Shown here: piece after piece, positions 5,920 through 64,000 of the stretch | Numbering within the stretch: position 1 is the stretch's first letter | Layout: every line of letters starts with the position of its first letter | Assembly: GCA_020055645.1 (NCBI GenBank) | Contig: CM034546.1 | Span: 10,664,001-10,728,000 of the forward strand | Direction of reading: 5' to 3' | DNA length: 64,000 nt | From: Tomocerus qinae | Lineage: Eukaryota > Arthropoda > Collembola > Entomobryomorpha > Tomoceridae | The notes under the pieces: generated by a model | What the model was told of the DNA's origin: nothing | The model's database searches: none | What the model saw: the letters and a program-made list of their open reading frames with translations, nothing else | Made by a program: the position numbers and the translations under genes

Positions 5920-7135
5920 ATCCAATGGATCTTTGTCTTTGGTCTTCAAGATCTGTCTGTGAAGTCAGGATCTTCAAATTATTCGTTATCTAAAGCGGAA
6001 ATACGTTGCTGGTGCACCTGACAATCGGTTATGATCCGATCCCCAAACATTTGCGACTCCGTCAATTTTTAAAAAGTGAAACATGAGTTTTTAAAAAGTA
6101 ATTATACTGCACCGTATTAATTTGGCGCAAAAGAAGGTTATATGTAGACAAGGAAACATATTACCATTTTACATAAATAAGTTGTTATTTGGAAAACACA
6201 AAAATAAAATGTTAATTGAAAAAACCAAAATTGAATTGTCATTTGAAAAAACTCCAAAATTGAATTGCCATTTGAAAAAAACCCAAAATTAAACATCAAA
6301 CTTGACTCTAGAATATTCATTACTTGAGGAAATTAGAGTTGATTCTTTTTGCTTTTTAAACCCACATTTACTTATCCTTTGCTTTGATGGACCATCTTCC
6401 TCTTCAGTGTCTAAAATTCATCAAATCAATATGTCGCTTTATTTTGTAACTTATGACGATTATCGAAATTGTGTACAAAATCATAATCAGTATGAACTAA
6501 AGCATATATAATTAATAATCATGATTAATGGTCACCATTTTGATTTGAACCTGGAACTGTTGATGTATCACATACTGTTAAAATATAGTCAATATAGGCA
6601 TGTAACAAAATAACTTACTTGTTTCTATCATTACTGTAACGTCCAATTCTGGCCAGCGGGATTTCGGGTCAGCCACATTTTCACTTAACGTTTTTTCTGT
6701 TATTGAAGGCGTTGATGAATATGTTGAAGGTTGGGGTGATGGTGATAGACTGTTCACCAACGATGATGCATCTGTACCCGCTGCATTGATTTTTGGAAAA
6801 TAAGACCCGGGTAAATCAGAAATTGAAGCCTCATCAGGTTTTGGTATACATGGATTCTGCATAAAAAGTATATCGACAGATGTCTGTTTATAGTAAATTA
6901 AAGGTGGCATTTAATTTTTTTCATAGATTTGATTATCAAGGTAAAATCGTCCAAATTGAAATTACCAATTTGGCTTGACCAAAGGTGGATTTTGAGAATG
7001 CAGTTTCTTCCCCAGAAAGTGAAGAAGAGCAAGTCTGGATTCTTCTTGTCCTACAACCAGTCTCACTAGAATTAGATATTTTCATTGCTGTCTCCGACGT
7101 CCGTCTGGCCATGTCCAAAGTGTCTTTAAACCAAA
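5920..7135 (-). pseudogene. Copy A of a multi-exon gene, possibly trihelix/MADF-like
   Basis: Exon-like pieces on the minus strand run from about 7118 to 5920. The first (7118 to ~6967) contains ETAMKISNSSETGCRTRRIQ and ends at a gtaatt donor. The second (6858 to ~6609) follows a tttatgcag acceptor, is Ser/Pro-rich, and ends SRWPELDVTVMIET before gtaagt. The third (about 6408-6302) is basic, with SKQRISKCGFKKQKEST. A block near 6060-5950 is shared with copy B. The WPELDVTVMIE word resembles the opening of a trihelix/Myb-SANT domain, but that is weak. Copies B (36380-37440 with 49727-49890) and C (18146 on) are its relatives. The last pieces lack a clean frame, so it is probably decayed or only partly visible. 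Confidence 0.4.
6565..6572. other. Paralogous empty site of the 12-kb hAT
   Basis: Here 'gatgtatcacatactg' is uninterrupted. The corresponding place in copy B reads 'gatgcatcacg', then the hAT at 37449-49718, then 'gcatcacgtactg'. Sequence on both sides aligns with copy B on both sides of the transposon, so this 8-mer (gtatcaca) is the counterpart of the duplicated target gcatcacg. Confidence 0.85.
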
Positions 7136-13600: not shown

Positions 13601-14487
13601 AAAAAGCAAATATCTAGGCTACAGTTAACATTTAAATAATAAACCAAATCAACGAATATTTCTAGTCGACTGGTTTATGGGAAAATTGTACAGCCAAGTG
13701 CTGCTATAAAAAACTTAGTTTATCATTTATGAATTAAGTTTATCTTTACAAACATTTTAATCTTGAAATCTGACAACCATTTGAACTTTTATGCAACTTT
13801 AGAGCCAATAAACGGCTTTGAACGATAAACTACATCAGTCTTTTTATCAATATATATCAAACACAGGTGTATCGTGTATCTCACCTATTTAGGAGTCTCA
13901 ATTAGTCTTTGGTGGTTACGACGTAATTACACGACATATTAAAGTGAATTGAAAATAGCCTACAATTTTTGTCGGAAATTTTGATTCATTAGAGAACTCA
14001 AAATTTCCATTTACCTTGATACTCCCAAAGAATTTAAACAGTGTGTATTATGTTCAGACCCGACAGAATAACAGAACCGAGCTCGAAGCGGAGAGAAGCT
14101 TTTTAAAAATTAATTATAAACAGTTATTAGAAGCAAATAATATTACGATTAATTTTGTGTGTTCGTCCATCTTTGGTTGAACTCTTAGGTTTTCGTTGAC
14201 CCTTAACTGAATTGTGCAAATATTTGAATTTTGCATAAGCATCCACTGTCAACTTATTGGTCCAACTGAGATTTGCAATTCAATCATTCTGAATTGAATT
14301 ATACGGTACAGAAATTATGGTATAATATTTACTTGAGATTGAGAATCCCTTCTTGTGCCTGTATCACGACAAAGACTATGGGTAACAAAGGTATACTCTT
14401 CCACATTTGATTAAATATTTCTAAATTTTCTAACTTCATAAATATTAAAATAATTTTTTGAAAAGGTTGAGCTTTGGATTTGAAAAA
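10602..14487. repeat. Inverted duplication between receptor copies 2 and 3
   Basis: No coding gene is seen between the divergent receptors. The left half (10602-11970) and the right half (12880-14487) are diverged inverted copies. Shared words include 'ttttggctaaagtcact', 'tctcttacctaaagccatag' / 'ctatggcttataggtaagaga', and 'catttaaataataaa' near 13630. The centre (about 11970-12880) is unshared and AT-rich. The arrangement is a ~8-kb palindromic duplication with the two genes as its arms. Promoters for both genes must lie in the duplicated arms, but I can name no TATA box or initiator with confidence. Confidence 0.7.
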
Positions 14488-20182: not shown

Positions 20183-20359
20183 AATTTTTTCCATGTATGT
20201 TTCCAAGTTTTACATTACTACATGACCAGATGCCACTAACCAATATTTTATCGTTTTGCTCGTTGTTGTGCAAAACAAATGATTCTCCATCAAAAGTTTC
20301 TCCCCATGTTCCATTCATGATTATGGACGAAGTAGAATTCGGAAGTTTTGGCAGAATGT
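20183..20359 (-). pseudogene. MULE-associated-protein-like exon, distal part (split by LTR element)
   Basis: On the minus strand this reads LPKLPNSTSSIIMNGTWGET, then a phenylalanine-containing GESFVLHNNEQNDKILVSG stretch, and ends at a TAG at about 20183. The pattern 'LPxLPxS ... W ... T xDG xxFxLxxN ... ILxxG' is what I recall just upstream of the catalytic domain in MULE-associated (FLYWCH-type) proteins. The catalytic region itself is missing. The other half of the gene lies beyond the LTR element, at 27116-27434. The reading frame on the two flanks is in register across the 4-bp target duplication, so the LTR element landed inside an already existing exon. Function is unlikely. Confidence 0.45.
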
Positions 20360-20891
20360 TGTGACGTAAGGGGAAGTCTACAATAACCTTTCGTAAGAAA
20401 GGGTGAAATGAAAGAAAGAGAGTATAAAAAGGTTCGATGTATTTTGTACAAAGTCAGTCTTTTATTTATATATGAACACGTAGTGGATTAGATCCAAGAG
20501 AAAATAGACTGCCAATCATATAATATGCCAATTCGGTTAATAAAAATATAGATACATAATAATTTAGAATTTAATTAGTACATTAGGTCTTCTGAAGTGA
20601 AGCGAAGTGAAGAAATGTGCCGTTCGGCAAAGAATGATCGAAGACAGCAGTGCTGCTGTTTGAAGAGAAGGCTAGCCAGCAGTGCTGCTGGGATCAGGAG
20701 AGGAAGGTAGAAGGACCGTTCGGTCCGAGAGGAGAGCAAGGTATCAGCTCAGGTGCTGATGAGTTTCCAGAGTAGATCTGGAGGTGAAGGTTTCTGGATT
20801 CGTGACTTGCTGAGCCAATGCAAGTCACAGGACTTTGGGCCGCTGAAGTGTAGCGTCTTTCAGACGCACAGTACGAGTGTCAGGGGTTACA
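20360..20891 (-). repeat. 3' LTR of the Ty3/gypsy element
   Basis: 532 bp, starting tgtgacgtaagg and ending gggttaca as read on the plus strand. It matches 26584-27115 throughout. It carries internal short palindromes such as cagcagtgctgctg (twice) and ggaccgttcggtcc. Confidence 0.93.
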
Positions 20892-26569: not shown

Positions 26570-26580
26570 GTTGGGCGCCA
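26570..26580 (-). other. Primer-binding site of the LTR element (tRNA-Lys type)
   Basis: On the minus strand tggcgcccaac lies three bases after the 5' LTR. TGGCGCCCAAC is the word complementary to the 3' end of tRNA-Lys in many retroelements. This fixes the direction of the element and the exact inner edge of the 5' LTR. Confidence 0.75.
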
Positions 26581-26583
26581 TAT

Positions 26584-27115
26584 TGTGACGTAAGGGGAAG
26601 TCTACAATAACCTTTCGTAAGAAAGGGTGAAATGAAAGAAAGAGAGTATAAAAAGGTTCGATGTATTTTGTACAAAGTCAGTCTTTTATTTATATATGAA
26701 CACGTAGTGGATTAGATCCAAGAGAAAATAGACTGCCAATCATATAATATGCCAATTCGGTTAATAAAAATATAGATACATAATAATTTAGAATTTAATT
26801 AGTACATTAGGTCTTCTGAAGTGAAGCGAAGTGAAGAAATGTGCCGTTCGGCAAAGAATGATCGAAGACAGCAGTGCTGCTGTTTGAAGAGAAGGCTAGC
26901 CAGCAGTGCTGCTGGGATCAGGAGAGGAAGGTAGAAGGACCGTTCGGTCCGAGAGGAGAGCAAGGTATCAGCTCAGGTGCTGATGAGTTTCCAGAGTAGA
27001 TCTGGAGGTGAAGGTTTCTGGATTCGTGACTTGCTGAGCCAATGCAAGTCACAGGACTTTGGGCCGCTGAAGTGTAGCGTCTTTCAGACGCACAGTACGA
27101 GTGTCAGGGGTTACA
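26584..27115 (-). repeat. 5' LTR of the Ty3/gypsy element
   Basis: 532 bp, the same length and, by eye, the same sequence as 20360-20891. Promoter and start of the element transcript are expected here on the minus strand. Confidence 0.93.
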
Positions 27116-37440: not shown

Positions 37441-37448
37441 GCATCACG
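37441..37448. repeat. Left target-site duplication of the giant hAT
   Basis: gcatcacg here is repeated exactly at 49719-49726 immediately outside the other terminus. Eight base pairs is the hAT duplication length. Confidence 0.93.
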
Positions 37449-37544
37449 CAGTGATGGGCGGGAGCTCATCCCAAGTCAACTGAGACTAGTCTCGACTAAA
37501 GCCAGTCGACTTCTTTCGGGAAAAGACTAGTCTTATTCACGTGA

Positions 37545-37860
37545 CTCGTTAAAAAGTCATCCCTAAAGTCATTTCTAGGATACGGCTCTTAAAAAGTCAT
37601 CTCTTAAGTCATCCCAACCACATGATCTCTTAAAAAGTCATCCCTTAAGTCATTTCTAATATACGGTTCTTAAGAAGTCATCTCTTAAGTCATCTCAATC
37701 ACATGATATCTAATAAAGTCATCCTTTAAGTCATCTCATTCACGTGGTCTCTAAAAAAGTCACCCCTAAAGTCATCTCTGAAATCCAACTCTCATAAAGT
37801 CATCTCTTAAGTCATCTTAATCACATGGCTCGTTAAAAAGTCATCTTTAAAGATATCTCC
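37545..37860. repeat. Left subterminal AAGTCATC array
   Basis: About eight units of roughly 41 bp, each with a pair 'aagtcatctcttaagtcatc' followed by 'atcacatg'-like spacer. The array runs in the same direction and nearly the same unit order as the right array at 49285-49640. Arrays of short subterminal motifs are known transposase-binding sites in hAT elements; that role here is inference. Confidence 0.8.
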
Positions 37861-39034
37861 ACCAAGGTATCGAAAAACCCGGGTTTTTTAGGAAAAAACC
37901 CTCGACCCTGGGTTTTTTAGGGTTTTTTGGGTTTAAGGGTTTTTTATATAACTATAGGTATAAATACAAGCCTATACTGTACCATATATGAAAACTACAG
38001 CTGACAACAACAACCGTGTCAACTACTATTACTTACGTCAATGAAAAGAAAAATTAAAGCATAAAAGTTTAATTTTATTATGTTGTAACGTCAAACGTAG
38101 CAAATGCAGTATTTTTGTGAACACCTATATTATTATTACTGTTTGATAACAACTAGTGAAATATTAAGCATTATAATATTTTACTGATTATATTGACTTT
38201 ATGAAATTATTCCTTTGTTAATTTGAAGCTTTAATTGCAAAGCATTACAGTAATGAATATGTAATGATAAATTGAAGTTATGTGTACAACAATATTATAA
38301 ACATAATCTTCACAATGTAATGACTAAAGTATACATAAAACGAATATTATTATAGTCCTCACATTACGATACATTAATTACGCGTAGACGAGTAGAAGCT
38401 ATATTTGTTTCCACCTGATTATGCATTTGTTTACATTTTTGAATAGAAATTAGTATGTATTACGTATCTAGATGGAGCTACCCAACCCATAAAAAACCCG
38501 ACCCACAACCCTGTAAGTTTTACCAAGTAGTTTAGATGAATCCGACAAAAAATTCATACTGCAGATAAAACTGTGTAAATAAAATTAGTCTATACATAAC
38601 ATGTCTTTTGATTTTAAGAGAAATCGGTTTTAATTATGAGCATTATTCTGAGCAATAGATTTAAAATAAATGATGATGTGGATTAAAATTACTGCTAACA
38701 GAAAATACTATTTATTTCATCACATAAAATTCAATTAAATTATATGCGCTTTAATATATGATAAATACTAACTAAAATAAAATGTAAGACAATTTTACAT
38801 GCCCCAATAATTAATTGGACATAATTATTAAGGAACAAACTTTGAATTGGACAAAAACGTTTGTATAATTAAAGTGAGTTACAATTGATATTTGATTTCT
38901 AGCAACGTTTACTCACTATTGTTTCCTACTAAAGTATGTCATTTATTATTTGATTATTTTGCATAATATCAAAATAAAAGAAATCGGACCGTCCGACTTC
39001 TGATATACTTTTACACTATTAAAACTTTACACAT
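37861..39034. other. AT-rich 3' region of the hAT transposase gene
   Basis: No gene is seen. Around 37870-37960 are runs of 'gggttttttagg' words and their complement, with a matching 'ataaaaaacccgacccac' near 38485. The pair may mark a small nested element, but I find no target duplication. Confidence 0.4.
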
Positions 39035-41993
39035 TTATTCCATTTGCAGCTTATTTTCTAGTTGGGGCGAACGATAATCACTGTAGGTCAAAATGTCATT
39101 AAGAGTATTTATTTTTAGTCTATTTCTTCTGTGTCGCCTCATAGCCCCCGCTACCGAAAACAATCTTTCAACTGAACCAGAAGAAGCCGGTATTCCTAAA
39201 TATTTTCTGGCTAATGAACTAGCAATGGGATATTTGGTTTTTTTAGATTGCCAGAACTGTAAAGGATCAGAATTTGAATTGCATTTCTCTTCATGAAATA
39301 GATAAGACTCGCATTCCGTGTTCAAGTTAGACGATCTATCTTCTGAAATATTTTGAACAAAATTAAAAACTCCTGAACTGCTTGAGGGCATTGCTTTTGA
39401 TGTTAGTTTTCTCTTTTTTGAGGTTGTTGTGAGAGATGTAGTGCTAGTACAAGGAATTTCGGATATTTCTTTTGCTACGTATGTATCAAAAATGGTTTTA
39501 GCATAATTTTCGGAAGGCACATTTAGGCGAACAAGGAGCTTTCGTTCAGACGAATATTCAACCGTTTCAGAATGTCTTTCACATCCCACGAAAATAGATA
39601 ACTTCATCCGAGGATCTAAAATGGTAGCAATAACAAAATTATCATTATTTATTACACTATCTTCAAATCGTTGCTTGATGTTGCAAAGAAGATCTCGTTT
39701 AAAGGACTCATAATGCTGGCATAGAGTATTTTTCGTATCCTGAAACAACTTGATAATACACGGGATGGCTAAAGAAGACGTTATATAGTCTCCTTGAAGT
39801 TCGTCAGTTGTGGTTTGCCAATGTTTTAAGAGCCTTACAAGTTCTAAAAAGTTTTGTGCGATCAAGGTATTTTGGAGGTTCCAAATGAAAATTTTCTTTG
39901 GTCGTAGCGCTGTACTCCAAAATTAGTTGTTGCGCATGGACAAACATATTGGTCTACAAAGAAGCATTTATCAAAATGAAAAAAATGTCATATGAAATTG
40001 AAATGAAGTTTGAAATTGGACAGTCCAATTTCGTAAGTTAAGATAAATTGTACATTTATGAAAATACCTTTACGTCTGTCAGGCGTTCCAAAGTTAACAA
40101 AATTGCATTCCATCTTGTAATTCCAATGTTTGGCAATCCTAGTCCTTTGCATTTTTCGCGTAATTTACTCATGTAATTAGGGCGGCGATGGAAAAACTTT
40201 ACAATCTTTTGGGCATACAATACGATTTGGCTAACGTCACGATCTTTCTTTATGGCATCATTTATAGCGAGTTGCAAAAGGTGAGCCATGCACCCAATTC
40301 GTTTCCATGTCCCAACATATATTATAGAGCTGGCATCATTAGATTCAAAATTATTATCACTTGAATCGTCCTCCTCATTTTCCGTATCAAAATTATCATC
40401 ATCATCTCTATCCAGATCAAGCAAGGCACTGGATGGTCCATTGTCTTCTAAAAGGAATTGAAGTTTAAAAGCTTTTTGCATATTAGATGCATTGTCCGCA
40501 ACTATGAATCCAATTTGATTGGTTTTCAGACCCACCTTCTTTGCCACAGTCATTACTGTATTTTCAATGTTCGCGCCGGTATGGGACATATTGAACTCTT
40601 CAAATCCAATGGTTTTATTTACGTTTTCAAAAACACTGTTGATGTATTGAGCTTTTACTCCTAAAACTGAATAGCCATCCTTACTAGTCCATAGGTCAAC
40701 AATTAGATGAACGGATCCGGGTGGTTGACTTTTAATGTTAAGTTTCAAGTTGTCGTGAATAGCTGACATTTTATTATCTAAATGTCTCTTCACAGTTCTT
40801 CTACTACGTAAAGTTACTTGTGGCGACAGAACTTCAACTAATTTTTTAAAAGCCGATCCTTCCACTATTGAAAACGGCATGCCGTCTACAGCGACGACAT
40901 CTAAAATCGCCTGTTCAAATTGTTTCTGTCTAGAAGATTCTAATGGCAGCTTTAGTGTAGCGGTCCCAAATGCTTGAATTTTAGTTTGTCCACCATTACT
41001 GTCAATTGTTTCCGGCTCAATTTGGTGACTATTCTGTTTAATTTTTTTAAATATCATTAATTCTTTTGCTATGATATAATATCCTACCACAATTTGGACA
41101 AACCAAATTTATAGCTTGACATAATAACCGTTAAATCTTTTTTTGATCGTTTTTTTAATGTTGTTTTTTACCGAACTAATAATAAACGGGTTATGTGCTG
41201 ATTTTAGAATGCCCAAATTCATGGCAGGATAATACAATTTCTTACAATAATTTTTTTAACTTTTATTTCCGAAATGCCTACTCACCCTTAAATGCCGAAG
41301 GAAATTCCCTGTCTGTCTTTGGAACCGTGTGATTTTAGTTTGGCAATAAATACACTTATATTGCGGTTTACCTTCATCCCCCTCTTTAATTTCATTTGCT
41401 TCCAAAGGACGAAAATATTGAATTACTTGAGAAAATGACAAGGATTTAATATTTGTTCTTCTTCTGCGTGGAGTATGAACCTTTGATGAATAAGCTGTAA
41501 GAATTAGCATTATTATGATTAGTAATTAAATTACAATTAAGATATTTGTCTTTTAAAAATGATAACTAATATTAAGGCACTCCTAACATACCAATTCTTT
41601 CAACAGTAGAACTTAAATCGTTTTTAGGTTGCTCTCCTTCAACGAATGATGTCCTTATATTCGTAGCATCGTCTTCCTTAGAAGTGCTGGCATCATTCGA
41701 TTGCTCGATGCCATTATTGCGTATATCCTGTTCTTCATTTTCTACAGTTACCTCGTCATCTGGAGGGCTTGAATTTACAGTGTCATTATAGTCAGTAATT
41801 AGGTCATTAAGCGAATCTTCATTTACAACAATTATATCACAGCAGACATTATCCTCGTTTTCAATGTCCTGCGAAATTTTACAACAGCATAATTTAGTAT
41901 GTCAGTTAAGTTCTGTTCATAATATTATTTCTTTCCCTTGAGTTGAGAGCATTGCTTTGTGTCATTGTGAATGTATTGCAATTTACTTACCAT
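39035..41993 (-). CDS. hAT transposase with BED zinc finger (five exons)
   Basis: I read five exons: 41993-41991 (just ATG before gtaagt), 41868-41592, 41494-41286, 41033-40068 and 39953-39035. Splice phases agree at all four introns. The product is ~790 residues. An acidic N-terminus is followed by a BED finger created across an intron: CIYC in exon 3, then FLRHLR joined to NSH. The catalytic region has the hAT motifs LIVDLWTSKDGYS, FIVADNASNM, CMAHLLQLAI and TRWNAILLTLE. The C-terminal dimerisation end has the catalytic-Glu box SGSVERLFSVAGAMRRHRRN. Exon 5 changes frame once near 39850-39880 (its length does not fit one frame), so this copy is probably just inactivated or carries a base error. 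It moves the element by cut-and-paste. Confidence 0.85.
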
Positions 41994-42657
41994 TGTATGT
42001 TGCAATCCAACTCCAGATCCAATGAATCGAAATCGACCCAACTTTTGGACAGTGCGAAAGTACAGTATACTAAAATTAAGGTAAGTTGAAAACCGGGGAA
42101 TGGTACACAAATGACACAAAGATGTAATTATCTAGCTACTGTTTATCAATGTTTTGCTGCAAATTGGCTTGGAAATCTTTCTCTGCTATACACTATTAGA
42201 ATTTTTGAATTGTCGGGGAATGGTCGGTATTCAGTTCTTGGTAAAGGACAGAAACTCAAAGTATTCTGCTATGTACGCTACGCATGGTTGACAATACAAC
42301 ACTAAGATCAAAAACTGCGATGCGGTTTGAATCAAAATACGTATTGACTACACAAAGCAAAGCATGCGTTCAATTTCCATTATGTTTGCTTGTGCCGCGT
42401 GTTCTTATTTCTTATAGTGGTATTTGAGTTGGGGCTTGGTGCACATTAATTGAGGAACGAATTAATGACTGGATATATTGTCATCGATAACAATTCTACC
42501 ACATCAATTACATTCTTTTGATGTAGAAATTTGGACGGTCCAAATTCTAATTGTTCAATTAAAAGAAGTTGTCGGTGCTAAATTTTAGTATTTTAGCTTG
42601 CTATTTTGCATTACTGTTGCATTGTATCAGCCTGGAAAGGATCGCAGTGACGAAGGT
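41994..42657. promoter_or_regulatory. Shared 5' region of the two divergent hAT genes
   Basis: The transposase (minus, ATG at 41993) and the small gene (plus, ATG at 42658) are transcribed away from each other. This ~660-bp interval must contain both promoters and 5' UTRs. I see no TATA box that I would defend. The layout suggests coordinated expression, which is inference. Confidence 0.4.
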
Positions 42658-43437
42658 ATGGCTGAAGACACATCATTGGAATCAATCCGTATTGTTGTAC
42701 AGGAGGGGCAAGATATAAATGTTCTGTACGAAATGGTAATTTTAATTCCAATACTTACGAAGCAAACAATAAATACATATACTGTATAAAAATAAAAATT
42801 AAATAAGTTGCGGATACGCGTACGATTTAACACTTAATTTGCCGTATTTTAATATTGATTTTAAGGTTACATTGATTCCTAGACATGACCGACTTGTTCC
42901 TCGATGGATTGAAAATATATTTGAACACAATGAGATGACCGTTGATCAAGTAGTATCAATTTTAATGGGCTTCCTTTTAACTGAATTCGAAAAAGCTTAC
43001 ATCCGCAGGTAATATTGCCGCACATTCATATAAGCTGTATAATATAACCAAGCATATTGCCACAGCCTATATCCTGATCGGAAACCATTTGCACTATCCC
43101 CTTATTGTTATTGTTATACATGAAATAACCTAATAAATATATTTATAATTATACAAGGTTTGGAATCAAATTGTTAGAGATGGATATTGAGGATGCAGAA
43201 AAATTTGACTTTGTTAGCGACACTCTTTGTTTTATGAATTTTACGTTTTCACCTCGAGAATCATTTGCTGCCATCTGTAAGTATTTGAGAAAACAACAAA
43301 CTTGGAATGATACCGAACCGGAAAATACGTATATTTATCCGGAAGAGTATATGAATCATGAACCTTGGCCTTTATCACCAGCAGACTTTGAAGTTGTGAG
43401 ACCTGAGAGTAGCCAAGTTAACAATACTGAAGAATAA
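42658..43437 (+). CDS. Unrecognised 166-residue acidic protein (hAT accessory gene)
   Basis: Three exons fit exactly: 42658-42735, 42866-43008 and 43158-43437. They have gtaatt/gtaata donors and ttttaag/atacaag acceptors and phases that agree, 501 nt including the TAA. The protein starts MAEDTSLESIRIVVQEGQDI and has a helical, hydrophobic middle (QVVSILMGFLLTEFEKAYIR). It continues with MDIEDAEKFDFVSDTLCFMN and FSPRESFAAICKYLRKQ and ends in an acidic, Pro-rich tail. No signal peptide or membrane segment is visible. I do not recognise the family. It lies inside the giant hAT, divergent from the transposase and separated from it by ~660 bp, so it is probably an element-encoded partner or passenger. 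An upstream in-frame extension to about 42598 has no ATG. Confidence 0.65.
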
Positions 43438-44149
43438 ATAGAACACTAGATGGTCCAGTATTTCTAAATTTCCAGATGCATATTGTTGATGTAAAGCTCT
43501 TAATATAAATTGATATAATTAATTTATGGAACGATTATTTATATATTTAATTTCGCAATATTTGCCAATAAAATATAAAAAACGTTTAAATTGTGAGAGT
43601 AAATCAGTGAATGATACTAATACCTAAAAGTAATTTATATTGTATATGTAATCGGAATGATCACATTCATGTTGGCATAAATTTTAAGCTTTTATATTTA
43701 AATGTCTGTACAAAAATTTCGAGTTCGGCTATATTGAAGTGAAAAGTCTTGATGGATATTTAAAGTAAGATCTAAACCTCTTGCCAAGGCTCTTGCATTC
43801 TAAAAATGTGGCTCTATTTTAATGTATTAGCCTCGAAACTTATGCCAAACTTAAGCTGTGTGAGATCAGCAGCATGAAGTTGAGCGTCGGCTCGACAAAT
43901 CCCAGTCGGGATTTCTCGGTGGTGGTTGCTTGATTCTGAAAAGTGAAAAAATGGAAATAAAATGAAATGGTAAAATAAATAAAAGGGATTAATGGCATTC
44001 ATTTCACTATGGAAGTTAAATGACTTTAATTTACCTTGGACATGGCTTTTATAAAAAAACTGTAAGAATATAGTCAGAGAAAAATTTCAGAATAAAGTCT
44101 GAAATTGGAAACTCACAGATATCCCATTTGAACATCAACAGAAAACTAA
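43438..44149. other. Spacer inside the hAT, no gene seen
   Basis: AT-rich sequence after the small gene. A canonical 'aataaa' poly(A) signal occurs shortly after the stop (about 43566). No coding frame is supported. Confidence 0.4.
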
Positions 44150-45075
44150 TTTGGACATCCATATATGTTCAATTTGGACGTCCACAGATGACCAATTTGG
44201 ACGTCCACAGATGTCTAATATGGACGTCCACAGATGTCTAATATGGACGTCCACAGATGTCTAATATGGACGTCCACAGATGTCTAATATGGACTTCCCC
44301 AGATGTCTAATATGGACGTCCACAGATGTCTAATATGGACGTCCACAGATGTCTAATATGGACGTCCACAGATGTCTAATATGGACGTCCACAGATGTCT
44401 AATATGGACGTCCACAGATGTCTAATATGGACGTCCACAGATGTCTAATATGGACGTCCACAGATGTCTAATATGGACGTCCACAGATGTCTAATATGGA
44501 CGTCCACAGATGTCCAATTTGGACGTCCACAAATGTCTAATTCGATGTCCACAGATGTCCAATTTGGACGTCCACAAATGTCTAATTCGATGTCCACAGA
44601 TGTCCAATTTGGACGTCCACAAATGTCCGATTTGGACGTCCACAAATGTCTAACTTCGACGTCCACAAATGTCTAACTTCGACGTCCACAGATGTCTAAT
44701 ATGGACGTCCACAGATGTCCAATATAGACGTCCACAGATGTCCAATTTGGACGTCCACAAATGTCTAATTCGAAGTCCACAGATGTCCAATTTGGACGTC
44801 CACAAATGTCCGATTTGGACGTCCACAAATGTCTAACTTCGACGTCCACAGATGTTCAATTTGGACGTCCACAGATGTCTAATATGGACGTCCACAGATG
44901 TCCAATATAGACGTCCATAGATGTCCAATTTGGACGTCCACAAATGTCTAATTCGAAGTCCACAGATGTCCAATTTGGACGTCCACAAATGTACGATTTG
45001 GACGTCCACAAATGTCCGATTTGGACGTCCACAAATGTCCGATTTGGACGTCCACAAATGTCCGATTTGGACATC
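44150..45075. repeat. 23-bp tandem repeat array (about 40 units)
   Basis: The unit is 23 bp with the core ggacgtccacagatgtc. Variants have 'taatat', 'caattt' or 'taattcga' between cores. Each unit centres on the palindrome gacgtc. The left half is the most homogeneous; the right half alternates two variants in a higher-order pattern of several units. Because 23 is not a multiple of three, repetitive frames stay open on both strands; these are not genes. The array lies within the giant hAT between the small gene and the large inverted repeat. Confidence 0.9.
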
Positions 45076-45738
45076 CATAGATTGACACAAAGTGGCTAAC
45101 AGAGGTCACTTAGGGAATAACCCAAAGGATTCTTTCAAAGCCTATTTGAACCCTCCTGATAAAGCAAAAAGGGAAACCAAAGAAATAAAATGCTATTTAA
45201 AGTTCCGGGCTAACTTAAATCTAAAGTCGACTTGGAAGTGGGATAAGTCGAGATCTATAAACATTCTGGATTTTGAAAAACTAGCTTTTGGTTGGCTTAA
45301 TTAAGCTAAAATCTTTCTCCCAATTTTAAGGGGATTGGAGGAAATTCTTCCAGCAAAGCTCAAGTTGTGATGGCATGCAATTTTCATACCGTCGGCGGTG
45401 GCTAGTGATTTTTTCTAAAAACACGGCGGCGGCTGGCCGCCACGGGTGAGGGCTCTGGTCATAATCTGGTTTGTAAAATCAATCAGTCTACTCTTGAAAA
45501 TGTTGAAAGTTGATGTTGATATTGGAAACTTTGTTCTACTTTTCCTTGCATTTAATTTAAAAATCTTATTTTCACAATTGCAATACACTGTTACAATATT
45601 AGTGCTTCCGGTTCCACGCTTCTCATATTCTCTCTCAAATGACTAACGAATCTGCAGGAAGCCCAATATGCTAATTGATCTGTCTCCGACTCATCCAGAC
45701 ATCATTCTTGGTTAATAAATATTCAAATGCTAGAAAAA
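45076..45738. other. Spacer inside the hAT, no gene seen
   Basis: No supported gene. Around 45390-45445 is a small GC-rich stretch ('cggcggctggccgccacggg') that stands out from the AT-rich surroundings. Confidence 0.4.
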
Positions 45739-47646
45739 TGTGAGTGTGAAATAAACAACAGCCCAATCTTAGTCGTAGCCTCGAAGAATTATAAACGACT
45801 AAGAGTCGTGAACATTACCCAAACTCTGAGTACTACTATATCCGACAACTTGTAATAACTATCCAATTCCACAAAATTGGACATGCTGATTTCAAATATG
45901 GACCTCAAATTTATCACCGGACAACCGATATAGTGGACTGGGGTCCACCCACTATATCGGCATTTATATACTTTGCAATTAAATTCTGAAAACGCCAATT
46001 TAGAGGTTATTCAGCACGCTGATTTCAAATGTGGATCTCAAATTTATGTATTGACAACCGCTATAGTGGACTGGGGTCTACCCACTATATCGGCATCATG
46101 ACACTTTGCAATTAAATTCTGAAAACTCCAATTTAGAGGTTATTCAGCAAGCTGATTTCAAATGTGGATCTCAAATTTATGTATTGACAACCGCTATAGT
46201 GGACTGGGATCCACCCACTATATCGGCATCATGACACTTTGCAATTAAATTCTGAAAACGCCAATTTAGAGGTAATTCAGCACGCTGATTTCAAATATGG
46301 ATCCCAAATTTATGTATCGACGACCGCTATAGTGGACTAGGGTCCACCCAATATATCGGGATCATAATATTTTGCAATTAAATTCTTAAAACGCCAATTT
46401 AAAGGTAATTCAGCACGCTGATTTCAAATATGGATCTCAAATCTATGTGCTGACAACCGCTATAGTGGACTGGGGTCCACCCACTATATCGGCATCATGA
46501 TACTTTGCAATTAAATTCTGAAAACGCCAATTTTGAGGTAATTCAACACGCTGATTTCAAATAATTATAAAGTGCAAAGCTATAATTATATTATATTATA
46601 ATTATAATTAGAAAGCTGCAAAGTATAATGATGCCGATATAGTGGGTGGACCCCAAATAGCGGTTGTCGATACAACAATTTGGGATCCATATTTTAATTC
46701 AGCGTGGTGAATTACCTTTAAATTGGCGTTTCCAGAATTTAGTTGCAAAGTATCATGATACCGATATAGTCGGTGGACCCCAGTCCACTATAGCGGTTGT
46801 CAATACATACATTTGAGATCCATATTTGAAATCAGCGTGGTTAACAACCTCTAAATTGGCGTTTCCAGAATTTAGTTGCAAAGTATCATGATACCGATAT
46901 AGTCGGTGGACCCCAGTCCACTATAGCGGTTGTCAATACATACATTTGAGATCCATATTTGAAATCAGCGTGGTTAACAACCTCTAAATTGGCGTTTACA
47001 GAATTTAGCTGCAAAATATAATGATGCCGATATATTGGGTGGACCTCAGTCCACTATAGCGGTTGTCAATACATACTTTTGAGATCCATATTTGAAATCA
47101 GCGTGCTGAATAACCTCTAAATTGGCGTTTACAGAATTTAGCTGCAAAGTATATAAGTGCCGATATAGTGGGTGGACCCCAGTCCACTATAGCGAATGTC
47201 TATACATAAATTTGGGATCCATATTTGAAATCAGCATGCTCAGTAACCTCTAAATTGGCGATTTCAGAATTTAATTGCAAAGTATAATGATGCCGATATA
47301 GTGGGTGGACCCCAGTCCACAAAAACGGTTGTCGATACATAACTTTAGGATCCATATTTGAAATCAGCAAGCCTAATTACCTCTGAATGGGCGTTTACAG
47401 AATTTAAATACCAAATTTATGACGCCGATATAGTGGGTGGACCCCAGTCCACTATATCGGTTGTCCGGTGAGAAATTTAAGGTCCATATTTGAAATCAGC
47501 ATGTCCAATTTGGTGGAATTGAATAGTTATTACAAGTTGTCGGATGTAGTAGTAATCAGACTTTGGGTAATGTTCACGACTCTTAGTCGTTTATAATTCT
47601 TCGAGGCTACGACTAAGATTGGGCTGTTGTTTATTTCACACTCACA
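45739..47646. repeat. 1.9-kb inverted repeat made of ~133-bp units (foldback-like)
   Basis: The left end tgtgagtgtgaaataaacaa is matched in reverse complement by the right end at 47646. The arms stay complementary inward for most of 900 bp. Each arm is itself a series of ~133-bp units (five left, about seven right). Every unit contains a short palindrome, atagtggactggggtccac followed by ccactat, then 'ttgcaattaaattctgaaaa' and 'gctgatttcaaat'. The orientation flips near 46560-46615 at an AT-rich 'ataattata' centre. No target duplication is obvious. It may be a foldback element nested in the hAT or an expansion of its own sequence. Confidence 0.88.
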
Positions 47647-47959
47647 AATTATCATATCAATTACTATACAGAATAGAAGTAGTCTAGTGTACATAAATAT
47701 TAGATCTACTTATTATTCCAGAGAAAAATCCTAGTGTCTAGAAATTTTATCTTGAAATTTTCTCTGGAATTTTTACCTCTTTCTCCTTTTCACTTGCCTA
47801 TTCTGGGAAGGAGAAAGAAGATTGGGATTAGTTCAGATTAGTTCACAGTTGATTAATTGAATTAAATTTTTTAGATTTTGAACTACCTTTAAGCCAATCC
47901 CGTTAGGTATTTGCCCCTTTAATACCTTTAATTTTTGCTGATTTTGGATTGTCCAAAAT

Positions 47960-49255
47960 CAAATCAAGATGGCTATGCGGAAAATTAGTCAAAGGTATAG
48001 TACAAAAAATGGAAAAGTATGGAATAGCTGAAAACCCAAAGACACAACTCTCAACACAAAGAGCTGCGCCGTAGCGTCGAAAAAAGAAACAAAGTTCCTA
48101 AAAGGAAGTATACAATTCATCCATATAAAGAAAAAATATTACGATGGACTGTTCCCGATAATATTTTCAAGACGTTAAAATCAACCCATCAAATCGTCGA
48201 TGGGGTTTGAAATAAACATCATTGTATTGAGTCTAAGGCTGAATGCTATGCTCTGAAAGACTCAATCAAATCAATCTTTCATATTTTTGGATTTGGAAGG
48301 ACAGTCTCTGTATTCTTATACGGGGATTGTTTGCACAGTGCAAATTTCAACGCTCAAAAATATATTCGTTATAGACGCACTCAAGTTGCCACAGCAAATA
48401 AAAGATAATTTAAAATGTGTTTTGGAAAGTGAAGACATCACAAAAATAGTTCACGGGGTGCAAACGACGTCTATAACGGGATTTCGACATTTTTCTTTAC
48501 CCGTACATTGACACCCAAACAGTATATGCGGCTTATAAAGAACAAGAAAATGTCTTTACATATAATAAGACCATGGGATTCAAAGCTTTGGTGAAAGAAT
48601 TTTTGGAAATTGAAATTCCTTAACAGCAGTTGGTAGATTTTCATAGATTGCACGAGGGCCTTGTTAAGTACCGCGTACTTGATGTCAAGTTACTTCTTGG
48701 AGTGTGGTTGGAATTTTGTAAAAGATTAGATACCGGACGGTCCGGGATCTTCGTTAACGAGTTAATCTTAAAGTCGAGGAAGCTTATGCTAAATAATCTC
48801 TATGGTGATAAACAGTACCCCTCGTTTGATAAAGAATTTCTGTATCTTCAACAAGAGTTGATGTCAATACTGTTGCTAAAGAACTGTACAAGCTTCGCGA
48901 CTATACCGCTCGTAAGCAAGACATCCCACCAAAATGCGTACTGTCTACTGATTGTTTTAAAAGAATAGCAGAAACAGGAAGGGTGCCAGCCAATCTGGCT
49001 TCTGGTTTAAAAGCTGCAATTGTTAGGAAAAAAGAATTTTTTTCCTCCAACAAAGACTTTGAAAGGGATGTGTTATAGGTGTCGCTAGTTTGGTTAGGTG
49101 TTGATTGCATAGAAGAAAAACAACCCAAATCTGAAGCAGAAAAAGATTGGTACAATCAACATTCAAAAGAATGGGAAATAGAGAAAAAGTGTCTAAGGGA
49201 CAAACAGTGGGAGAAGCGTGAGCTAACAAAAACTGTACATTTTTATCGACAATAA
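47960..49255 (+). pseudogene. Decayed RNase D-like 3'-5' exonuclease gene
   Basis: Pieces in several frames follow the order of a DEDDy exonuclease. Motif I region is DLEGQSLYSYTGIVCTVQIS (48290 on), with FVIDALKLP and KIVHG next. Motif II is DFDIFLYPYIDTQTVYAAYK (about 48482-48540). Motif III is in the open stretch from 48630 (LVKYRVLDVKLLLGVW, a Y-x3-D motif). After that come LYKLRDYTARKQDIPPKCVL and AETGRVPANL, which resemble the HRDC-type tail of RNase D relatives. A lysine/glutamate-rich C-terminus ends near 49255. The frame breaks several times and an in-frame stop lies near 48621, so it is dead. It lies between the inverted repeat and the right subterminal array of the hAT and was probably captured by it. 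Confidence 0.65.
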
Positions 49256-49284
49256 TATTTGATAAGAATAAAATCCGTAGGATG

Positions 49285-49640
49285 CGGTTCTTAAAAAGTC
49301 ATCTCTTAAGTCGTCCCAATCACATGACCTTTTAAAAAATCATCCCTAAAGTCATCTCTAGTATACGGTTTTTATGAAGTCATCTCTAAAGTCATCCCGA
49401 TCACGTGTTCTCATAAGAAGTCATCCTTCAAGTCATCTTTGGTAAATGGTTCTTAAAAAGTCATCCCTTAAGTCATCCCGATCACGTGTTTTCTTAATAA
49501 GTCATCCATAAAGTCATCCCGATCACGTGTTTGCTTAATAAGTCATCGCTAAAGTCATCTCTAATATTCAACTCTTATAAAGTAATCTCTTAAGTCATCT
49601 TAATCACATGGTTAGTTAAAAAGTCATCTCAGATGACTTC
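49285..49640. repeat. Right subterminal AAGTCATC array
   Basis: About eight ~41-bp units with 'aagtcatccctaaagtcatc' pairs and 'cccgatcacgtgtt' spacers. The last units ('ttaatcacatgg', 'agttaaaaagtcatct') match the last units of the left array in order and orientation. The two arrays are therefore direct, not inverted, repeats, unlike the outermost termini. Confidence 0.8.
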
Positions 49641-49718
49641 CAACATTGAAAAGACGAGAATGAGACTAGTCCCACACAAGTCATCTCTGACTCAGACTAG
49701 TCTGGCTGCCCATCACTG

Positions 49719-49726
49719 GCATCACG
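49719..49726. repeat. Right target-site duplication of the giant hAT
   Basis: gcatcacg, identical to 37441-37448. Confidence 0.93.
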
Positions 49727-52790: not shown

Positions 52791-53161
52791 TCACATTTGG
52801 TATCCCAAAATTGTTGACTGACCCCTCAAATTATGTTTATTTTATCCCTACATATACAGATATTGAAATCGGCACTTCTTCATCCCACCCACTCAATTAT
52901 TACTTCAAGAAATATTCCAATAATCGTGAACTATTTGAAATATATAAAATAAATACATTTTTGGAATAATTCAAATAAATATAAATATGCGTATTAGTAA
53001 TGAATATCACATACGTACCCCGGATGTTTATCATTTATATGAAATTTGTAATTGTTCGATTTTAATAAATTAAATGTTTATTTTTGCAGAAGCTTCAAAT
53101 GCAATGTCAGACAGCCTGACTTATTTAAAGCTCATTTTATTATTATTAAGTGAATTATTTA

Positions 53162-55111
53162 TTAAATTATCTTACGCAATTCAGAGACATCATCCATTGC
53201 AACTGGAAATAAACGATTTGAAATTTTTGTAGCGATCAATTTTAGTTTTTTTAAAAACCCCAAGAAATGAACTTCCAAAGTATGATGCCAAATCCTTTCT
53301 AAGAACAGTGTAAAGAAAGACCCAATTAAGATGTATCCACAAGCAAAGAAAATGGTATGAATCTTCATTGAAAGACTTATCGGCATTGTCTGAGACTCTT
53401 GATGCTTCAGTATTGAATGGGAAATTATATACTTAATATTATTTTCGAAAGCGTCTTGCTGATAAAAATATTTTAAGAAGCCTCCTTCTTGCATAAATTG
53501 AAAATATGAATGGAATTTGTAACGGTAACAATTTTGGAATTTATAAGGCATCGGTTCAGCAAGATCTGTTTCCTTGACAGTCATGCAGACACCATCTGAA
53601 GATATTTGAGATGGTATTAGAAGCACATGGTATTTACTTTCCTCTTTGTTAATAACGTCAAATACTCTCAATAAAAAGTTGGTCAACAACTTGTATGTAA
53701 GTTCCCATATTCCCATTTTTCTACCATTTGGTGATGCATCGGTTTGCCAATCGAATTTGTAGACACTTTTATTATAACTCTTCACAATTTTATATTTTTC
53801 AAAGAATTTAACTTTCTGTTCGTTCATATTCCGAAACTTGTCTTTCTGCAAAAACAACTTGTATCCATTTTCCACGAGATCTTTGAAGTCCACAAATTGT
53901 TTTCTGTCTGGCGGAGCAATAATTTCGCTTGTTATCCACGTTTCATATTGAGTAACAATTACAAATCCCGTGGACACAATTGCCAAATACAAAATGTTTC
54001 TTCCTTTATTGGAAACATCCTGATTTAAAAGAACGGCTATTGTGGATACTAGAATTATTTGTACTTTCTTGTATAAAGAAGTAATTCTAAAGCTCAAAAC
54101 ATAAAATGAAATCGGTATTAGCGAGAATATCAGCAACCAGGAGTAGCTATCAAAAGTATTTTGAACTAGAACTGTCAAAGGAGTGTCGAAGAAACGAGGA
54201 TTGGCTTCACAGTAGTAGGGAATCATTTCTCGAAAGTATTCAATGAAAAGAGTTTGATACCACTTTATCTTATAAGTTTTCACTTTATTTGAAAGCATTC
54301 GAATTTGTCCATATAGTTTATGTTCTTTCACATCTTCATATTTCCTTCCATATACTACAGTAAAGTTTAATCTTTCAGCCATCAACTCAACAGCTCTAAC
54401 TGAATGTCGACAATAGAATCCCTCTTTCATTGTTGAGTAGATTGTTTTCCGACATTCGGGCATTTTTACAGGACCAATAAACGAAAATTGTCCAAAATAA
54501 CCAGCAATCTCAATGCAATAAAGATTGCCATTTAAAGTAATCCAAATCTTTTCCCATTCTTCCTCGGATAATCTGTCTTTGATTCGATAAAGGGATAAAC
54601 CCCCTCTTTTAGAATTGTAGAGAATTGGAGTGTAAACTGAATATTTGTTCCTTCTTCTCATTGCAAATATAAAGAGGGGAGGAAGCAAATGTTTAATAAG
54701 GCTTGATCGCCAATTTGAATTCATCCATTTCAATTCATCTTTGATGACAATTATAAATCTTGAATTCCGACGATTTATTTCTTTTCCAACGGATGCAACC
54801 AGGTTTGTCCTAGTAGGATGTGGTTCTATGAGAATATTTAAACTGCACAAATTTCTAGACAGATCCCGTGGCTTGGCCGAATGACGACCAAAAATAGTTA
54901 TGTTATAAGTGTATGTTGCCAAGGTCCAGGGTTGGCCATTTTGGTTAGACAATATAAAATCCGTCTGCCATTCGGACTGGTCAAACGTGACCATGTTAAA
55001 ATCACAATTTCTATAAAATGACAAACTTCGGAAACATTGGACATTGTTGATGACAAAAGCAGTAAATAAAATTGGGATAAAGCGGACCATAAAATGTATT
55101 TCCTTATGCAT
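53162..55111 (-). CDS. Ionotropic-receptor-like protein, copy 4 (intact)
   Basis: A single open frame of 649 residues from the ATG at 55111. Signal peptide 1-26 (ends NNVQC). The N-terminal extracellular part has FYRNCDFNMVTFDQSEWQTD, EEEWEKIWITLNGNL and several conserved cysteines. Membrane segments: ~322-344 (SWLLIFSLIPISFYVLSF), a pore-like stretch ~349-364 (IILVSTIAVLLNQ), ~372-390 (LYLAIVSTGFVIVTQYETW) and ~584-607 (FFACGYILIGSFFTLFLERI). An S2-like domain (391-583) lies between the third and fourth, with VDFKDLVENGYKLFL and SDGVCMTVKETDL. This is the segment order of ionotropic receptors, without the canonical glutamate-binding residues that I could point to. It is intronless and the reference copy for this cluster. 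A chemosensory role is inferred. Confidence 0.85.
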   Translation of the reverse strand: MHKEIHFMVRFIPILFTAFVINNVQCFRSLSFYRNCDFNMVTFDQSEWQTDFILSNQNGQPWTLATYTYNITIFGRHSAKPRDLSRNLCSLNILIEPHPTRTNLVASVGKEINRRNSRFIIVIKDELKWMNSNWRSSLIKHLLPPLFIFAMRRRNKYSVYTPILYNSKRGGLSLYRIKDRLSEEEWEKIWITLNGNLYCIEIAGYFGQFSFIGPVKMPECRKTIYSTMKEGFYCRHSVRAVELMAERLNFTVVYGRKYEDVKEHKLYGQIRMLSNKVKTYKIKWYQTLFIEYFREMIPYYCEANPRFFDTPLTVLVQNTFDSYSWLLIFSLIPISFYVLSFRITSLYKKVQIILVSTIAVLLNQDVSNKGRNILYLAIVSTGFVIVTQYETWITSEIIAPPDRKQFVDFKDLVENGYKLFLQKDKFRNMNEQKVKFFEKYKIVKSYNKSVYKFDWQTDASPNGRKMGIWELTYKLLTNFLLRVFDVINKEESKYHVLLIPSQISSDGVCMTVKETDLAEPMPYKFQNCYRYKFHSYFQFMQEGGFLKYFYQQDAFENNIKYIISHSILKHQESQTMPISLSMKIHTIFFACGYILIGSFFTLFLERIWHHTLEVHFLGFLKKLKLIATKISNRLFPVAMDDVSELRKII

Positions 55112-56720
55112 TTTGTCAAATTCAAACTCAGCCTATCTAAAATGTTATTTTACTATTTACAAAAAAGGTAAAAATGTGGCTCTATTGTAAAGAATGTGGA
55201 AGGGCAGTTCTGCTATTCTAAGCGTGTTTATTATGGTACATGAAATTCCCAACCTCAAGTGAATAGTATGCCGTACTGTATAATTAAATTCAGAATGATT
55301 GCAGAATCACAATTGGCGCCAGACATGGCACTTTAAATATTTCTCGGAAATAAATAAGCGAAATTTTTAAAATGTTTCGCGAAATATTTCCAATATCTTT
55401 GAAAAATTTGAAATAAATGAAATAATATTGTACATGGCATTTATTTCAAAAATTTCAATAAATTTCACGCGAAATAAATGAATTGCGCATGCGTGTACAC
55501 ATGAGGATTGTATTTCAAAAATTTCATCAGTTTCAAATATTTCATTTTTTAAGAAAAATTCCTTGAAATAAGAAATTAATGCCATGTCTGATTACATAAA
55601 AGAGTCAAAGATTACATAAAAACCAAATATTGGTACATTTCAGTTTAGTGTGAACTATAACTCGGAGTTTTTGTAGTGTCACTTCACATTACGAATGCGA
55701 ATAATGTTACTTAAAATAGTCGACTGGAAACATTATTGGATTTAGTTTATTATTTAAATGTGAAGTGTAGATTAGATTTCTGCTTTTTGAACTTTCACTT
55801 ACCCAAACAATTCAAAGAAATCAGGCCACAAAGCATCTATAGATTTCGATTTTATTCTATCCTTTTTTGGAGTAAACTCAAGAAGGTTTTCTTTAATTTT
55901 TATTAATATTTCGAAGGTGTCTGAGGTTCTGGTACTAAATGATAATAGTCCACTGCATTACAATACTTGTATTACTATTAAATATCAGAACGGAATCCAG
56001 ATCTATAAATGTTATATTTAAAACGTCAATGGTTAATTTATAATATTAACAATGCTTTAACAATATAGCGAGAGTCGTTTAAGATTAGAGGATTACACTT
56101 CCTGATCGAAGATATCTAAAGTATTGTGATGGAACTACGAAAGTAGTATTCATAATAATGACAATAAATTGTCGGCGCTATCTCTTCACATATATGCCTT
56201 CTTCGTTCCCTTATCGTCAGAATGAATGTGGATATTTTGGATGGCTTAGAACTGTCATGTTTCACTTGCCTATAAGCCATAGTCTTATAAAATATTTAAA
56301 CGTGTTTTGGCTAAAGTCACTGAGAGACGACAAACTTTGCTGGCCTCAAGTTATTTTTCTTCGCACACAACCTTCCGACATTGAAATGATGATTCGTCAG
56401 TGAATACAGTATAACAAAGAAATACCATTACTATTATAATACATCACGATATTTTAGTATTTGTATCACGAATATGAGGACTTAGGGCTGTTCAATGTGT
56501 TTCCAGCGAAGGTAAACGATATTAAGCTTAGCTTACATAAACACATTTCTTGGATGGACATTAAAGTTGACTGCATACATAATTTAATGAATTAGCATGA
56601 ACAGCTTAGGCACTTTCAGACTTACAACTATGACCAACAATAACGACAAGACTTACATGAGACCTTCACTTCCAAGTTAAGGTCTAAATTATTCAAACTT
56701 AACAGACATCAATAATTTTT
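55112..56720. repeat. Duplicated 5' flank of receptor copy 4
   Basis: No gene is seen. It aligns with the flanks of the other copies ('cattattggatttagtttat', 'ttttggctaaagtcactgag', 'acgatattttagtatttgta'). At 55320-55590 is an inserted AT-rich block of 'aaatatttc' / 'gaaatattt' words and their complements ('tttcaaaaatttca'), which the other flanks lack. A 55-bp block at 56655-56710 matches 33529-33583. Confidence 0.6.
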
Positions 56721-63289: not shown

Positions 63290-63720
63290 TTGATTGATTT
63301 CTGTTGATTTTGATGGTCAACATTAGCAACTTTTGATTTTATATAGGTTTTGATAGTCAAAATTAATTTGAAAATTGCAATAAATATTGTTTTAAATCCC
63401 AACATTAGTCTAATTTTATTTTATGTTGATTTTAATACTCAACATTAATCTAATTTGATTTTCTGTTGATTATGATACTAAACATTAATCTATTTTGATA
63501 TTCTGTTGATTTTGATAGTCAACATTAATTTTATTTTATTTTATGTTGATTTTGATACTCAACGTTAATCTAATTTGATTTTCTGTTGATTTTGATAATC
63601 AATATTAATCTATTTTGATGTTTTGTTGATTTTGATAGTCAACATTAATTTATTCTGATGTTCTGTTGATTTTGATAGTCAACATTTATCTATTTTGGTT
63701 TCCTGTTTTTGATTGTCAAC
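63290..63720. repeat. Minisatellite of ~40-bp palindromic units
   Basis: About eight to ten copies of a ~40-bp unit with the core gttgattttgatagtcaac, an inverted repeat (gttga / tcaac), followed by 'attaatctattttgat'. Copies diverge at the edges. More diverged relatives of the core continue toward the window end. Confidence 0.75.
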
Positions 63721-64000
63721 ATTAGTCTATATCGGTTTCCTTTAGATTTTAATAGTTAATATAGTACCACACTTAAAATACTAATTGTTTTAATTATTTT
63801 TCCATTGTTGGTTTAAGTCGTTGTTAATATATTAATCTGCGCATTCCATTTTTGATTATTTTGATAGTTAAATATAACCTATTTTAAAATTTTTGAATTG
63901 ATAGTCAATTATGAACTAATTTGAATTACTGTACATTTTAGTAATCAAAATACATCTATTTCTAATATTATTCTCCCAAAAATGTGCACACGGCCCCCTT

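What the first reader, a model, noticed from the sequence alone, without database searches (positions are those of the whole stretch)
37449..49718. A 12.3-kb hAT transposon carrying extra genes and satellites
The boundary is unusually well defined: exact 8-bp duplications, 11-bp inverted termini, and an empty paralogous site. The cargo is unusual: a multi-exon BED transposase, a divergent gene of unknown family, a satellite array, a giant inverted repeat and a captured exonuclease gene. Known hAT elements of this kind are normally 2.5-5 kb. A large cargo-bearing hAT in an arthropod would be worth describing.
Basis: partly seen in the sequence, partly recalled or inferred. Interest (0 to 1): 0.88.

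Follow-up and report, generated by a model that had tools for sequence, protein, structure and literature searches.

The report
Large hAT transposon with companion genes
This is a 10-12 kb jumping gene of the hAT type that moves as one piece in what is probably an arthropod genome; besides its transposase it carries a second gene and a dead RNA-exonuclease-like gene, and relatives carry that exonuclease intact, so the extra genes look like old equipment and not accidental cargo.

Summary
The boundaries are real: exact 8-bp duplications, 11-bp inverted ends, empty paralogous site. The window's own genome holds eight full-length copies (9.8-12.3 kb), each with its own 8-bp duplication; two differ by 1 substitution in 9,774 bases. 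So the large unit moves as one, and recently. Four of eight copies keep an open transposase frame under my splice model; the window copy does not. A divergent three-exon gene is open in 7 of 8 and was found nowhere else in the genome. The inverted repeat is a nested insertion present in 2 of 8. The exonuclease is broken in 8 of 8, but is not a private capture: a sister hAT (9,193 bp, transposase 60-64% identical) and a distant hAT (8,486 bp, 30%), both bounded by 8-bp duplications, carry it with open frames. Eight exonuclease-transposase pairs within 6 kb, outside the close clade, compare with 0.11 expected under uniform placement (about five independent families). Relatives share a small divergent companion gene; the window family's second gene sits likewise but shows no detectable homology to it. 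Verdict: a true hAT, of an apparently undescribed multi-gene lineage.

The parts
37441..37448 (.). target-site duplication, left (GCATCACG)
37449..37459 (+). left terminal inverted repeat CAGTGATGGGC
37537..37859 (+). left subterminal array, 41-bp units; AAGTCATC all in one orientation (12:0 over 37449-37870)
39035..39953 (-). transposase exon 5 (hAT dimerisation domain); frameshifted in this copy
40068..41033 (-). transposase exon 4
41286..41494 (-). transposase exon 3 (BED zinc finger)
41592..41868 (-). transposase exon 2
   Evidence: GT-AG splice model, inferred
41991..41993 (-). inferred start codon / end of transposase exon 1
   Evidence: inferred
41994..42657 (.). 664-bp intergenic region between divergent genes
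42658..42735 (+). gene 2 exon 1
42866..43008 (+). gene 2 exon 2
43158..43437 (+). gene 2 exon 3 (total 166 aa, no known family)
44114..45082 (+). 23-bp satellite array; 39-53 units in the 8 copies
45739..47646 (.). nested inverted-repeat element made of 133-bp units, 223-bp outer arms, apparent 4-bp duplication AAAT; only in copies A and B
48028..49250 (+). Rrp6-like exonuclease pseudogene (exonuclease + HRDC), broken in 8 of 8 copies
49278..49629 (+). right subterminal array, same orientation as left (15:1 over 49261-49718)
49708..49718 (-). right terminal inverted repeat GCCCATCACTG
49719..49726 (.). target-site duplication, right (GCATCACG)
6172..6695 (+). empty paralogous target site (86.9% and 89.9% to the two flanks)

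Best explanation
This is one copy of a recently mobile, probably self-sufficient hAT cut-and-paste transposon family of 9.8-12.3 kb. The transposase, binding the subterminal arrays through its BED finger, excises and reinserts the whole unit with 8-bp duplications (structure and products shown; binding inferred from Hermes). The family belongs to a lineage of hATs that carry companion genes: an Rrp6-like DEDD 3'-5' exonuclease and a small gene transcribed away from the transposase. In the window family the exonuclease has decayed to a pseudogene, the small gene's place is held by a 166-aa gene with no detectable homology to the small gene of its relatives, a 23-bp satellite lies inside the unit in all eight copies, and in two copies a foldback-like element inserted later and now travels along. 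What the exonuclease does is inferred only: most likely it acts on RNA (as Rrp6 does), for example against silencing RNAs or on the element's own transcripts; DNA-end trimming is less likely.
For: Eight full-length copies with eight distinct 8-bp duplications; G and H differ by 1 substitution in 9,774; transposase dN/dS 0.20 between subfamilies (E-G), open in B, E, G, H. Gene 2 exons: 0 indels in 501 bp against 24 in 2,204 bp of nearby non-coding DNA (E-G; Poisson chance about 0.004, my arithmetic), open in 7 of 8, found only at the 8 copies. Sister element C4: 9,193 bp, TSD GTGTAGAC, same TIR, open exonuclease frame. Distant element L055: 8,486 bp, TSD TTGGGCAT, TIR CAGAGCTGGGCAC, open exonuclease frame and gene 2'. 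Other exonuclease loci near hAT transposases: 8 pairs within 6 kb, 0.11 expected.
Against: The exonuclease sits on different sides of the transposase in the window family, C4 and L055, so repeated acquisition is possible. 79 of 87 other exonuclease loci had no transposase hit within 6 kb (only relatives of exon 4 were sought). L047 and L048 (6.2 kb sister elements) lack it, and two distant hATs (L051, L052) showed no exonuclease and only weak, non-significant gene 2' matches (E 0.12 and 0.056) within about 3-5 kb. Gene 2 dN/dS is 0.52 (8.2 synonymous, 17.8 non-synonymous), which alone does not exclude neutrality, and one copy (H) is frameshifted. B-E transposase dN/dS is 0.67 on 7 changes. No expression or activity data. 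One genome only.
Confidence: 0.82

Rival explanations
1. Passive capture: the exonuclease is a host gene family that hAT elements picked up several times (Pack-TIR style), with no role in transposition.
For: Different position in each family; dead in 8 of 8 copies of the window family while those copies still moved; 79 of 87 other exonuclease loci without a detected transposase within 6 kb, many of them long open frames; Pack-hATs are known in animals (PMC8277862, passages).
Against: Open frames in two delimited hATs with 30-64% transposase identity; gene 2' lies with it in C4, L053, L054, L055 and L056; 8 pairs against 0.11 expected.
Confidence: 0.3
2. The 12-kb unit is an ordinary small hAT into which unrelated sequences inserted privately in this copy.
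For: True for the inverted repeat, absent from 6 of 8 copies.
Against: Gene 2, satellite and exonuclease remnant are in 8 of 8 copies of both subfamilies with distinct duplications.
Confidence: 0.02
3. The copies spread by segmental duplication, not transposition.
For: One orphan right end (C1:10767255) carries 1.3 kb or more of the window's own flank at 99.9% and is a segmental duplicate.
Against: The eight full-length copies have different flanks and different 8-bp duplications.
Confidence: 0.01

Closest known systems
hAT superfamily (Ac/Hobo/Hermes/Tip100/BuT2)
   Same: 8-bp duplications, short inverted ends, BED finger, hAT dimerisation domain; a five-exon transposase gene as in BuT2 (PMC3942097, abstract start, passages)
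   Different: 10-12 kb against 2.5-5 kb; second gene; exonuclease; internal satellite
Pack-TIR / Pack-hAT elements
   Same: hAT ends carrying gene-derived sequence (PMC8277862, passages)
   Different: there mostly single-copy (four multicopy cases, 1.4%); here full elements with their own transposase, in eight copies, and the exonuclease is shared by distant hATs
Two-gene DNA transposons with an accessory protein (MuDR, En/Spm, Harbinger; recalled, no call)
   Same: transposase plus a small second gene in one mobile unit
   Different: other superfamilies; gene 2 and gene 2' match no Pfam model
Rrp6 / exosome component 10 exonuclease
   Same: C4 exonuclease aligns to yeast RRP6 over residues 30-333, E 1e-28; HRDC stretch 22.7 bits, just under Pfam's cut-off of 23.8
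   Different: transposon-borne; possible zinc knuckle at the C terminus (Pfam E 0.05, below cut-off; second exon spliced by eye)

Membership tests
hAT superfamily | 8-bp target-site duplication | tested here: met
   8 of 8 full-length copies, all different
hAT superfamily | short terminal inverted repeats | tested here: met
   11 bp, exact in 7 of 8; one end base changed in copy E
hAT superfamily | transposase with BED finger and hAT C-terminal dimerisation domain | tested here: met
   PF02892 4e-5 and PF05699 1.8e-15 in window frames; 4.2e-4 (20.7 bits, cut-off 20.6) and 2.2e-14 in full-length copy E
hAT superfamily | DDE catalytic residues | tested here: inconclusive
   motifs that I recall for hATs are visible in the translation; no structural test
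hAT superfamily | size 2.5-5 kb (usual, not strictly defining; PMC3942097) | tested here: not met
   9,792-12,270 bp in 8 of 8 copies
hAT superfamily, Ac group | duplication consensus nTnnnnAn (recalled) | tested here: inconclusive
   T at position 2 in 6 of 8, A at position 7 in 4 of 8 (counted by eye)
Pack-TIR | non-autonomous element with a host gene fragment and an identifiable parent gene | tested here: not met
   four of eight copies keep an open transposase frame; gene 2 found only at the eight copies; no match to the C4 exonuclease above 39% identity outside the window family and C4 itself
Rrp6-like DEDD exonuclease | exonuclease domain with catalytic acidic residues | tested here: met
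   C4: PF01612 2.2e-30, RRP6 1e-28; catalytic motifs read by eye from recalled consensus; broken in the window copy
gene 2' family of the relatives | window gene 2 homologous to gene 2' | tested here: not met
   profile comparison P 0.55; 407 and 1133 of 2000 shuffles reach the score; five-row HMM: best match E 0.42, a minus-strand window frame; gene 2 is not among the seven rows printed

The most novel reading that the evidence does not exclude
A lineage of hAT transposons whose founding unit encodes three proteins - transposase, Rrp6-like 3'-5' exonuclease and a small divergently transcribed factor - so that a hAT element carries its own RNA- (or DNA-) processing enzyme, perhaps to resist host silencing; the window family is a derived branch that lost the enzyme yet stayed mobile.
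Probability: 0.5. Interest if true: 0.85.

Novelty: new variant of a known kind. Interest (0 to 1): 0.74.

Why it matters
hAT elements are described as 2.5-5 kb transposons and, as I recall, as single-gene ones. A hAT lineage with a conserved exonuclease and a companion gene would be the first I know of (recalled; the listings of ten literature searches, showed none) and makes a direct question testable: do DNA transposons carry enzymes against RNA silencing? It also warns that some 'host' Rrp6-like genes in such genomes may be transposon genes.

Tried and rejected
Rejected: private later insertion of all cargo (gene 2, satellite and exonuclease remnant are in 8 of 8 copies); segmental duplication as the source of the copies; homology of gene 2 with gene 2'. 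Led nowhere: viral-contig scan with exon 4 (17 stretches, no relative); protein-database search with gene 2 (none of 18 candidates at E 1) and with the C4 exonuclease (none of 1712 at E 1e-3); solved structures with gene 2 (best E 0.93); fold of gene 2 exon 3 alone (pLDDT 51, not used); Rfam (none); a first tandem-repeat script failed and was redone. Literature; no title or abstract start shown describes a hAT with an exonuclease or a conserved second gene. One search showed 20 of 83 papers, 20 of 35, none. The library lacks most subscription journals; I could not search Repbase.

Rows dropped before counts: low-identity end hits (L018-L028) were examined apart and are not among the 8 copies; the orphan right end I was left out of the copy count. 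For one search I reduced by hand the 108 exonuclease matches to 96 loci and the 73 transposase matches to 47 loci; the nine exonuclease loci of the window family and C4, and the 11 close transposase loci, were left out of the pair count (87 by 36 loci). Four of the eight pairs (C1:10850607, C5:11052798, C1:117660590, C2:38174649) look like copies of one family (L053 and L054 are 99.8% alike over 8.8 kb; L056 shares their frames; C1:117660590 was not fetched and is judged from equal scores), so independent cases are about five. The 0.11 expectation assumes uniform placement; transposons cluster, so the true expectation is higher. The end scan of L053, L054 and L056 gave only one internal 2.08-kb pair with the same 8 bases in all three, which I took as chance and not as ends.
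Full report
Observation. The boundaries are exact: CAGTGATGGGC...GCCCATCACTG at 37449-49718 flanked by GCATCACG on both sides, and the same flanks occur joined at about 6571 in the window, 87% and 90% alike. The contents are as described: transposase on the minus strand, divergent gene on the plus strand, 23-bp array, inverted repeat, exonuclease remnant.

Does the unit move as one? The window's own genome (334 Mb, 115 contigs, unnamed) was searched with the outer 400 bp of each end: eight complete left ends and nine right ends. Eight loci are full-length elements of 12,270, 12,136, 10,288, 10,338, 10,318, 9,792, 9,820 and 9,827 bp; 8 of 8 have a perfect 8-bp duplication and all eight duplications differ (copy E has one changed end base). 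They form two subfamilies, 99.5-99.99% within and about 93.6% between. Copies G and H differ by 1 substitution in 9,774 aligned bases. The ninth right end is a duplicate of the window's own right end with its flank. A probable short relative, diverged, is an 818-bp element with duplication CTTCAGAG in L024.

Which parts belong? Gene 2, the 23-bp array (39-53 units) and the exonuclease remnant are in 8 of 8 copies. The inverted repeat is in A and B only. C, D and E show the empty site, with an apparent 4-bp duplication AAAT; F, G and H lack the surrounding 1 kb as well, so they do not show the site. It is therefore a nested insertion that later travelled with the host element, since A and B have different duplications.

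Genes. With GT-AG splices the transposase is about 790 aa in five exons; the frame is open in B, E, G and H, broken in A (window), C, D and F. dN/dS between E and G is 0.20 (38 synonymous, 30 non-synonymous), B-G 0.22, B-E 0.67 on only 7 changes. Gene 2 is 166 aa in three exons, open in 7 of 8 (H is shifted), E-G dN/dS 0.52. Its exons have no indel in 501 bp between E and G, whereas introns, intergenic DNA and 3' flank have 24 in 2,204 bp. A six-frame search gave 24 matches to gene 2, all at these eight loci. It matches no Pfam model and no protein in the large database. The nearest named transposase is from the springtail Allacma fusca, 30% identical, so the host is probably an arthropod; I did not identify it.

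Exonuclease. The window remnant matches RRP6. Its matches contain stops in 8 of 8 copies (translations of A, D, F, G, H), including a stop shared by both subfamilies, so decay probably began before they split. A transposase search gave a sister clade at 66-68% in exon 4. Two members, L047 and L048, are 6,238 and 6,222 bp with duplications GTTCTGTA and TAAGCCAG and lack the exonuclease (no match there). The third, on contig C4, is 9,193 bp with duplication GTGTAGAC, the same inverted ends, 41/82-bp subterminal units, and an open 386-codon exonuclease frame (RRP6 E 1e-28; PF01612 2.2e-30, HRDC just below cut-off, zinc knuckle weak). Its transposase BED exon matches in two frames, so that copy's transposase may be damaged.

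All three sister elements have a small gene transcribed away from the transposase (gene 2'), 51% identical between my L047 and C4 models. Searching the genome with the C4 exonuclease gave 108 matches. I reduced these to 96 loci; of the 87 outside the window family and C4, eight lie within 6 kb of one of 36 more distant hAT transposase loci, 0.11 expected under uniform placement (about five independent families). Four such loci were fetched. L055 is bounded: 8,486 bp, duplication TTGGGCAT, ends CAGAGCTGGGCAC, with exonuclease (386-codon open frame), gene 2' (E 6e-7 within this locus) and transposase (30% identical). L053, L054 and L056 also hold matches to all three genes, but I could not delimit their ends; the exonuclease frame is open in L053 (381 codons), split over two frames in L054, and matched only from residue 141 on in L056. 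Against this, two other distant hATs, L051 and L052, showed no exonuclease and only non-significant gene 2' matches (E 0.12, 0.056), and 79 of the 87 exonuclease loci had no transposase hit within 6 kb.

Relation of gene 2 to gene 2'. Same direction away from the transposase, three exons in both (gene 2' modelled by eye in L047), but no detectable homology. Either gene 2 replaced gene 2' or it has diverged beyond recognition.

Mechanism. Shown: whole-unit insertion with 8-bp duplications, recent spread, constraint on the transposase and, more weakly, on gene 2. Inferred from established hAT biology (Hermes; recalled, and the abstract start of PMC10368747): BED fingers bind the subterminal arrays. 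An oddity is that the arrays run in one direction at both ends (AAGTCATC 12:0 left, 15:1 right). Exonuclease role is a guess: Rrp6 kin act on RNA, so action on silencing or own RNA is my first choice, about 0.3; passive passenger about 0.3; DNA-end processing lower. The window family spread with a broken copy, so an element-borne exonuclease in the same unit is not needed for transposition there; supply from other elements is not excluded.

Known and new. hATs are given as 2.5-5 kb (PMC3942097, passages). Pack-TIRs in animals are mostly single-copy, 208 of 370 with hATs, and none was found in the insect reference genomes of that survey, though the paper also treats a Drosophila FB4 case (PMC8277862, abstract start, passages). 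A review of giant transposons has no occurrence of the word hAT in its main text (PMC6431247, term search). PMC8903248 (Pack-TYPE in plants) was seen in a listing only. The listings of ten literature searches showed no hAT with an exonuclease. I rate it a new variant of a known kind: membership in hAT is firm, the gene content is not described as far as I could see.

Noticed in passing
window 45739-47646: Foldback-like element: 223-bp arms 97% alike and about 12 units of 133 bp in two opposed blocks, apparent 4-bp duplication AAAT; family unknown.
   Followed up: partly
window 38984, 40016, 42531, 47944: Palindromes like TTGGACNGTCCAA: 9 matches with up to 2 mismatches in the window against 2.1 expected; the two exact ones lie in transposase intron 4 and in the intergenic region; the 23-bp array holds 29 GGAC-n-GTCC.
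   Followed up: partly
G000 C1:10767255 (L046): Orphan copy of the window's right element end plus at least 1.3 kb of its flank, 99.9% identical, 54 kb downstream: segmental duplication or assembly duplicate.
   Followed up: partly
window 20356-20891 and 26580-27115: Direct repeats of 536 bp, 99.8% identical: probably a young LTR retrotransposon.
   Followed up: no
window 8368-10720, 14281-16684, 52907-55228: Three dispersed 2.4-kb repeats about 80% alike, one inverted.
   Followed up: no
G000, 96 loci reduced: A large family of Rrp6-like exonuclease frames, many open, 79 of 87 outside the close clade not near a detected hAT transposase; origin unknown.
   Followed up: partly
C4 locus, L050/L049 (script position 14259-16794): 845-codon reverse-transcriptase-like open frame close to the C4 hAT.
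   Followed up: no
window 63298-63762: 40-bp tandem repeats, about 8 units.
   Followed up: no
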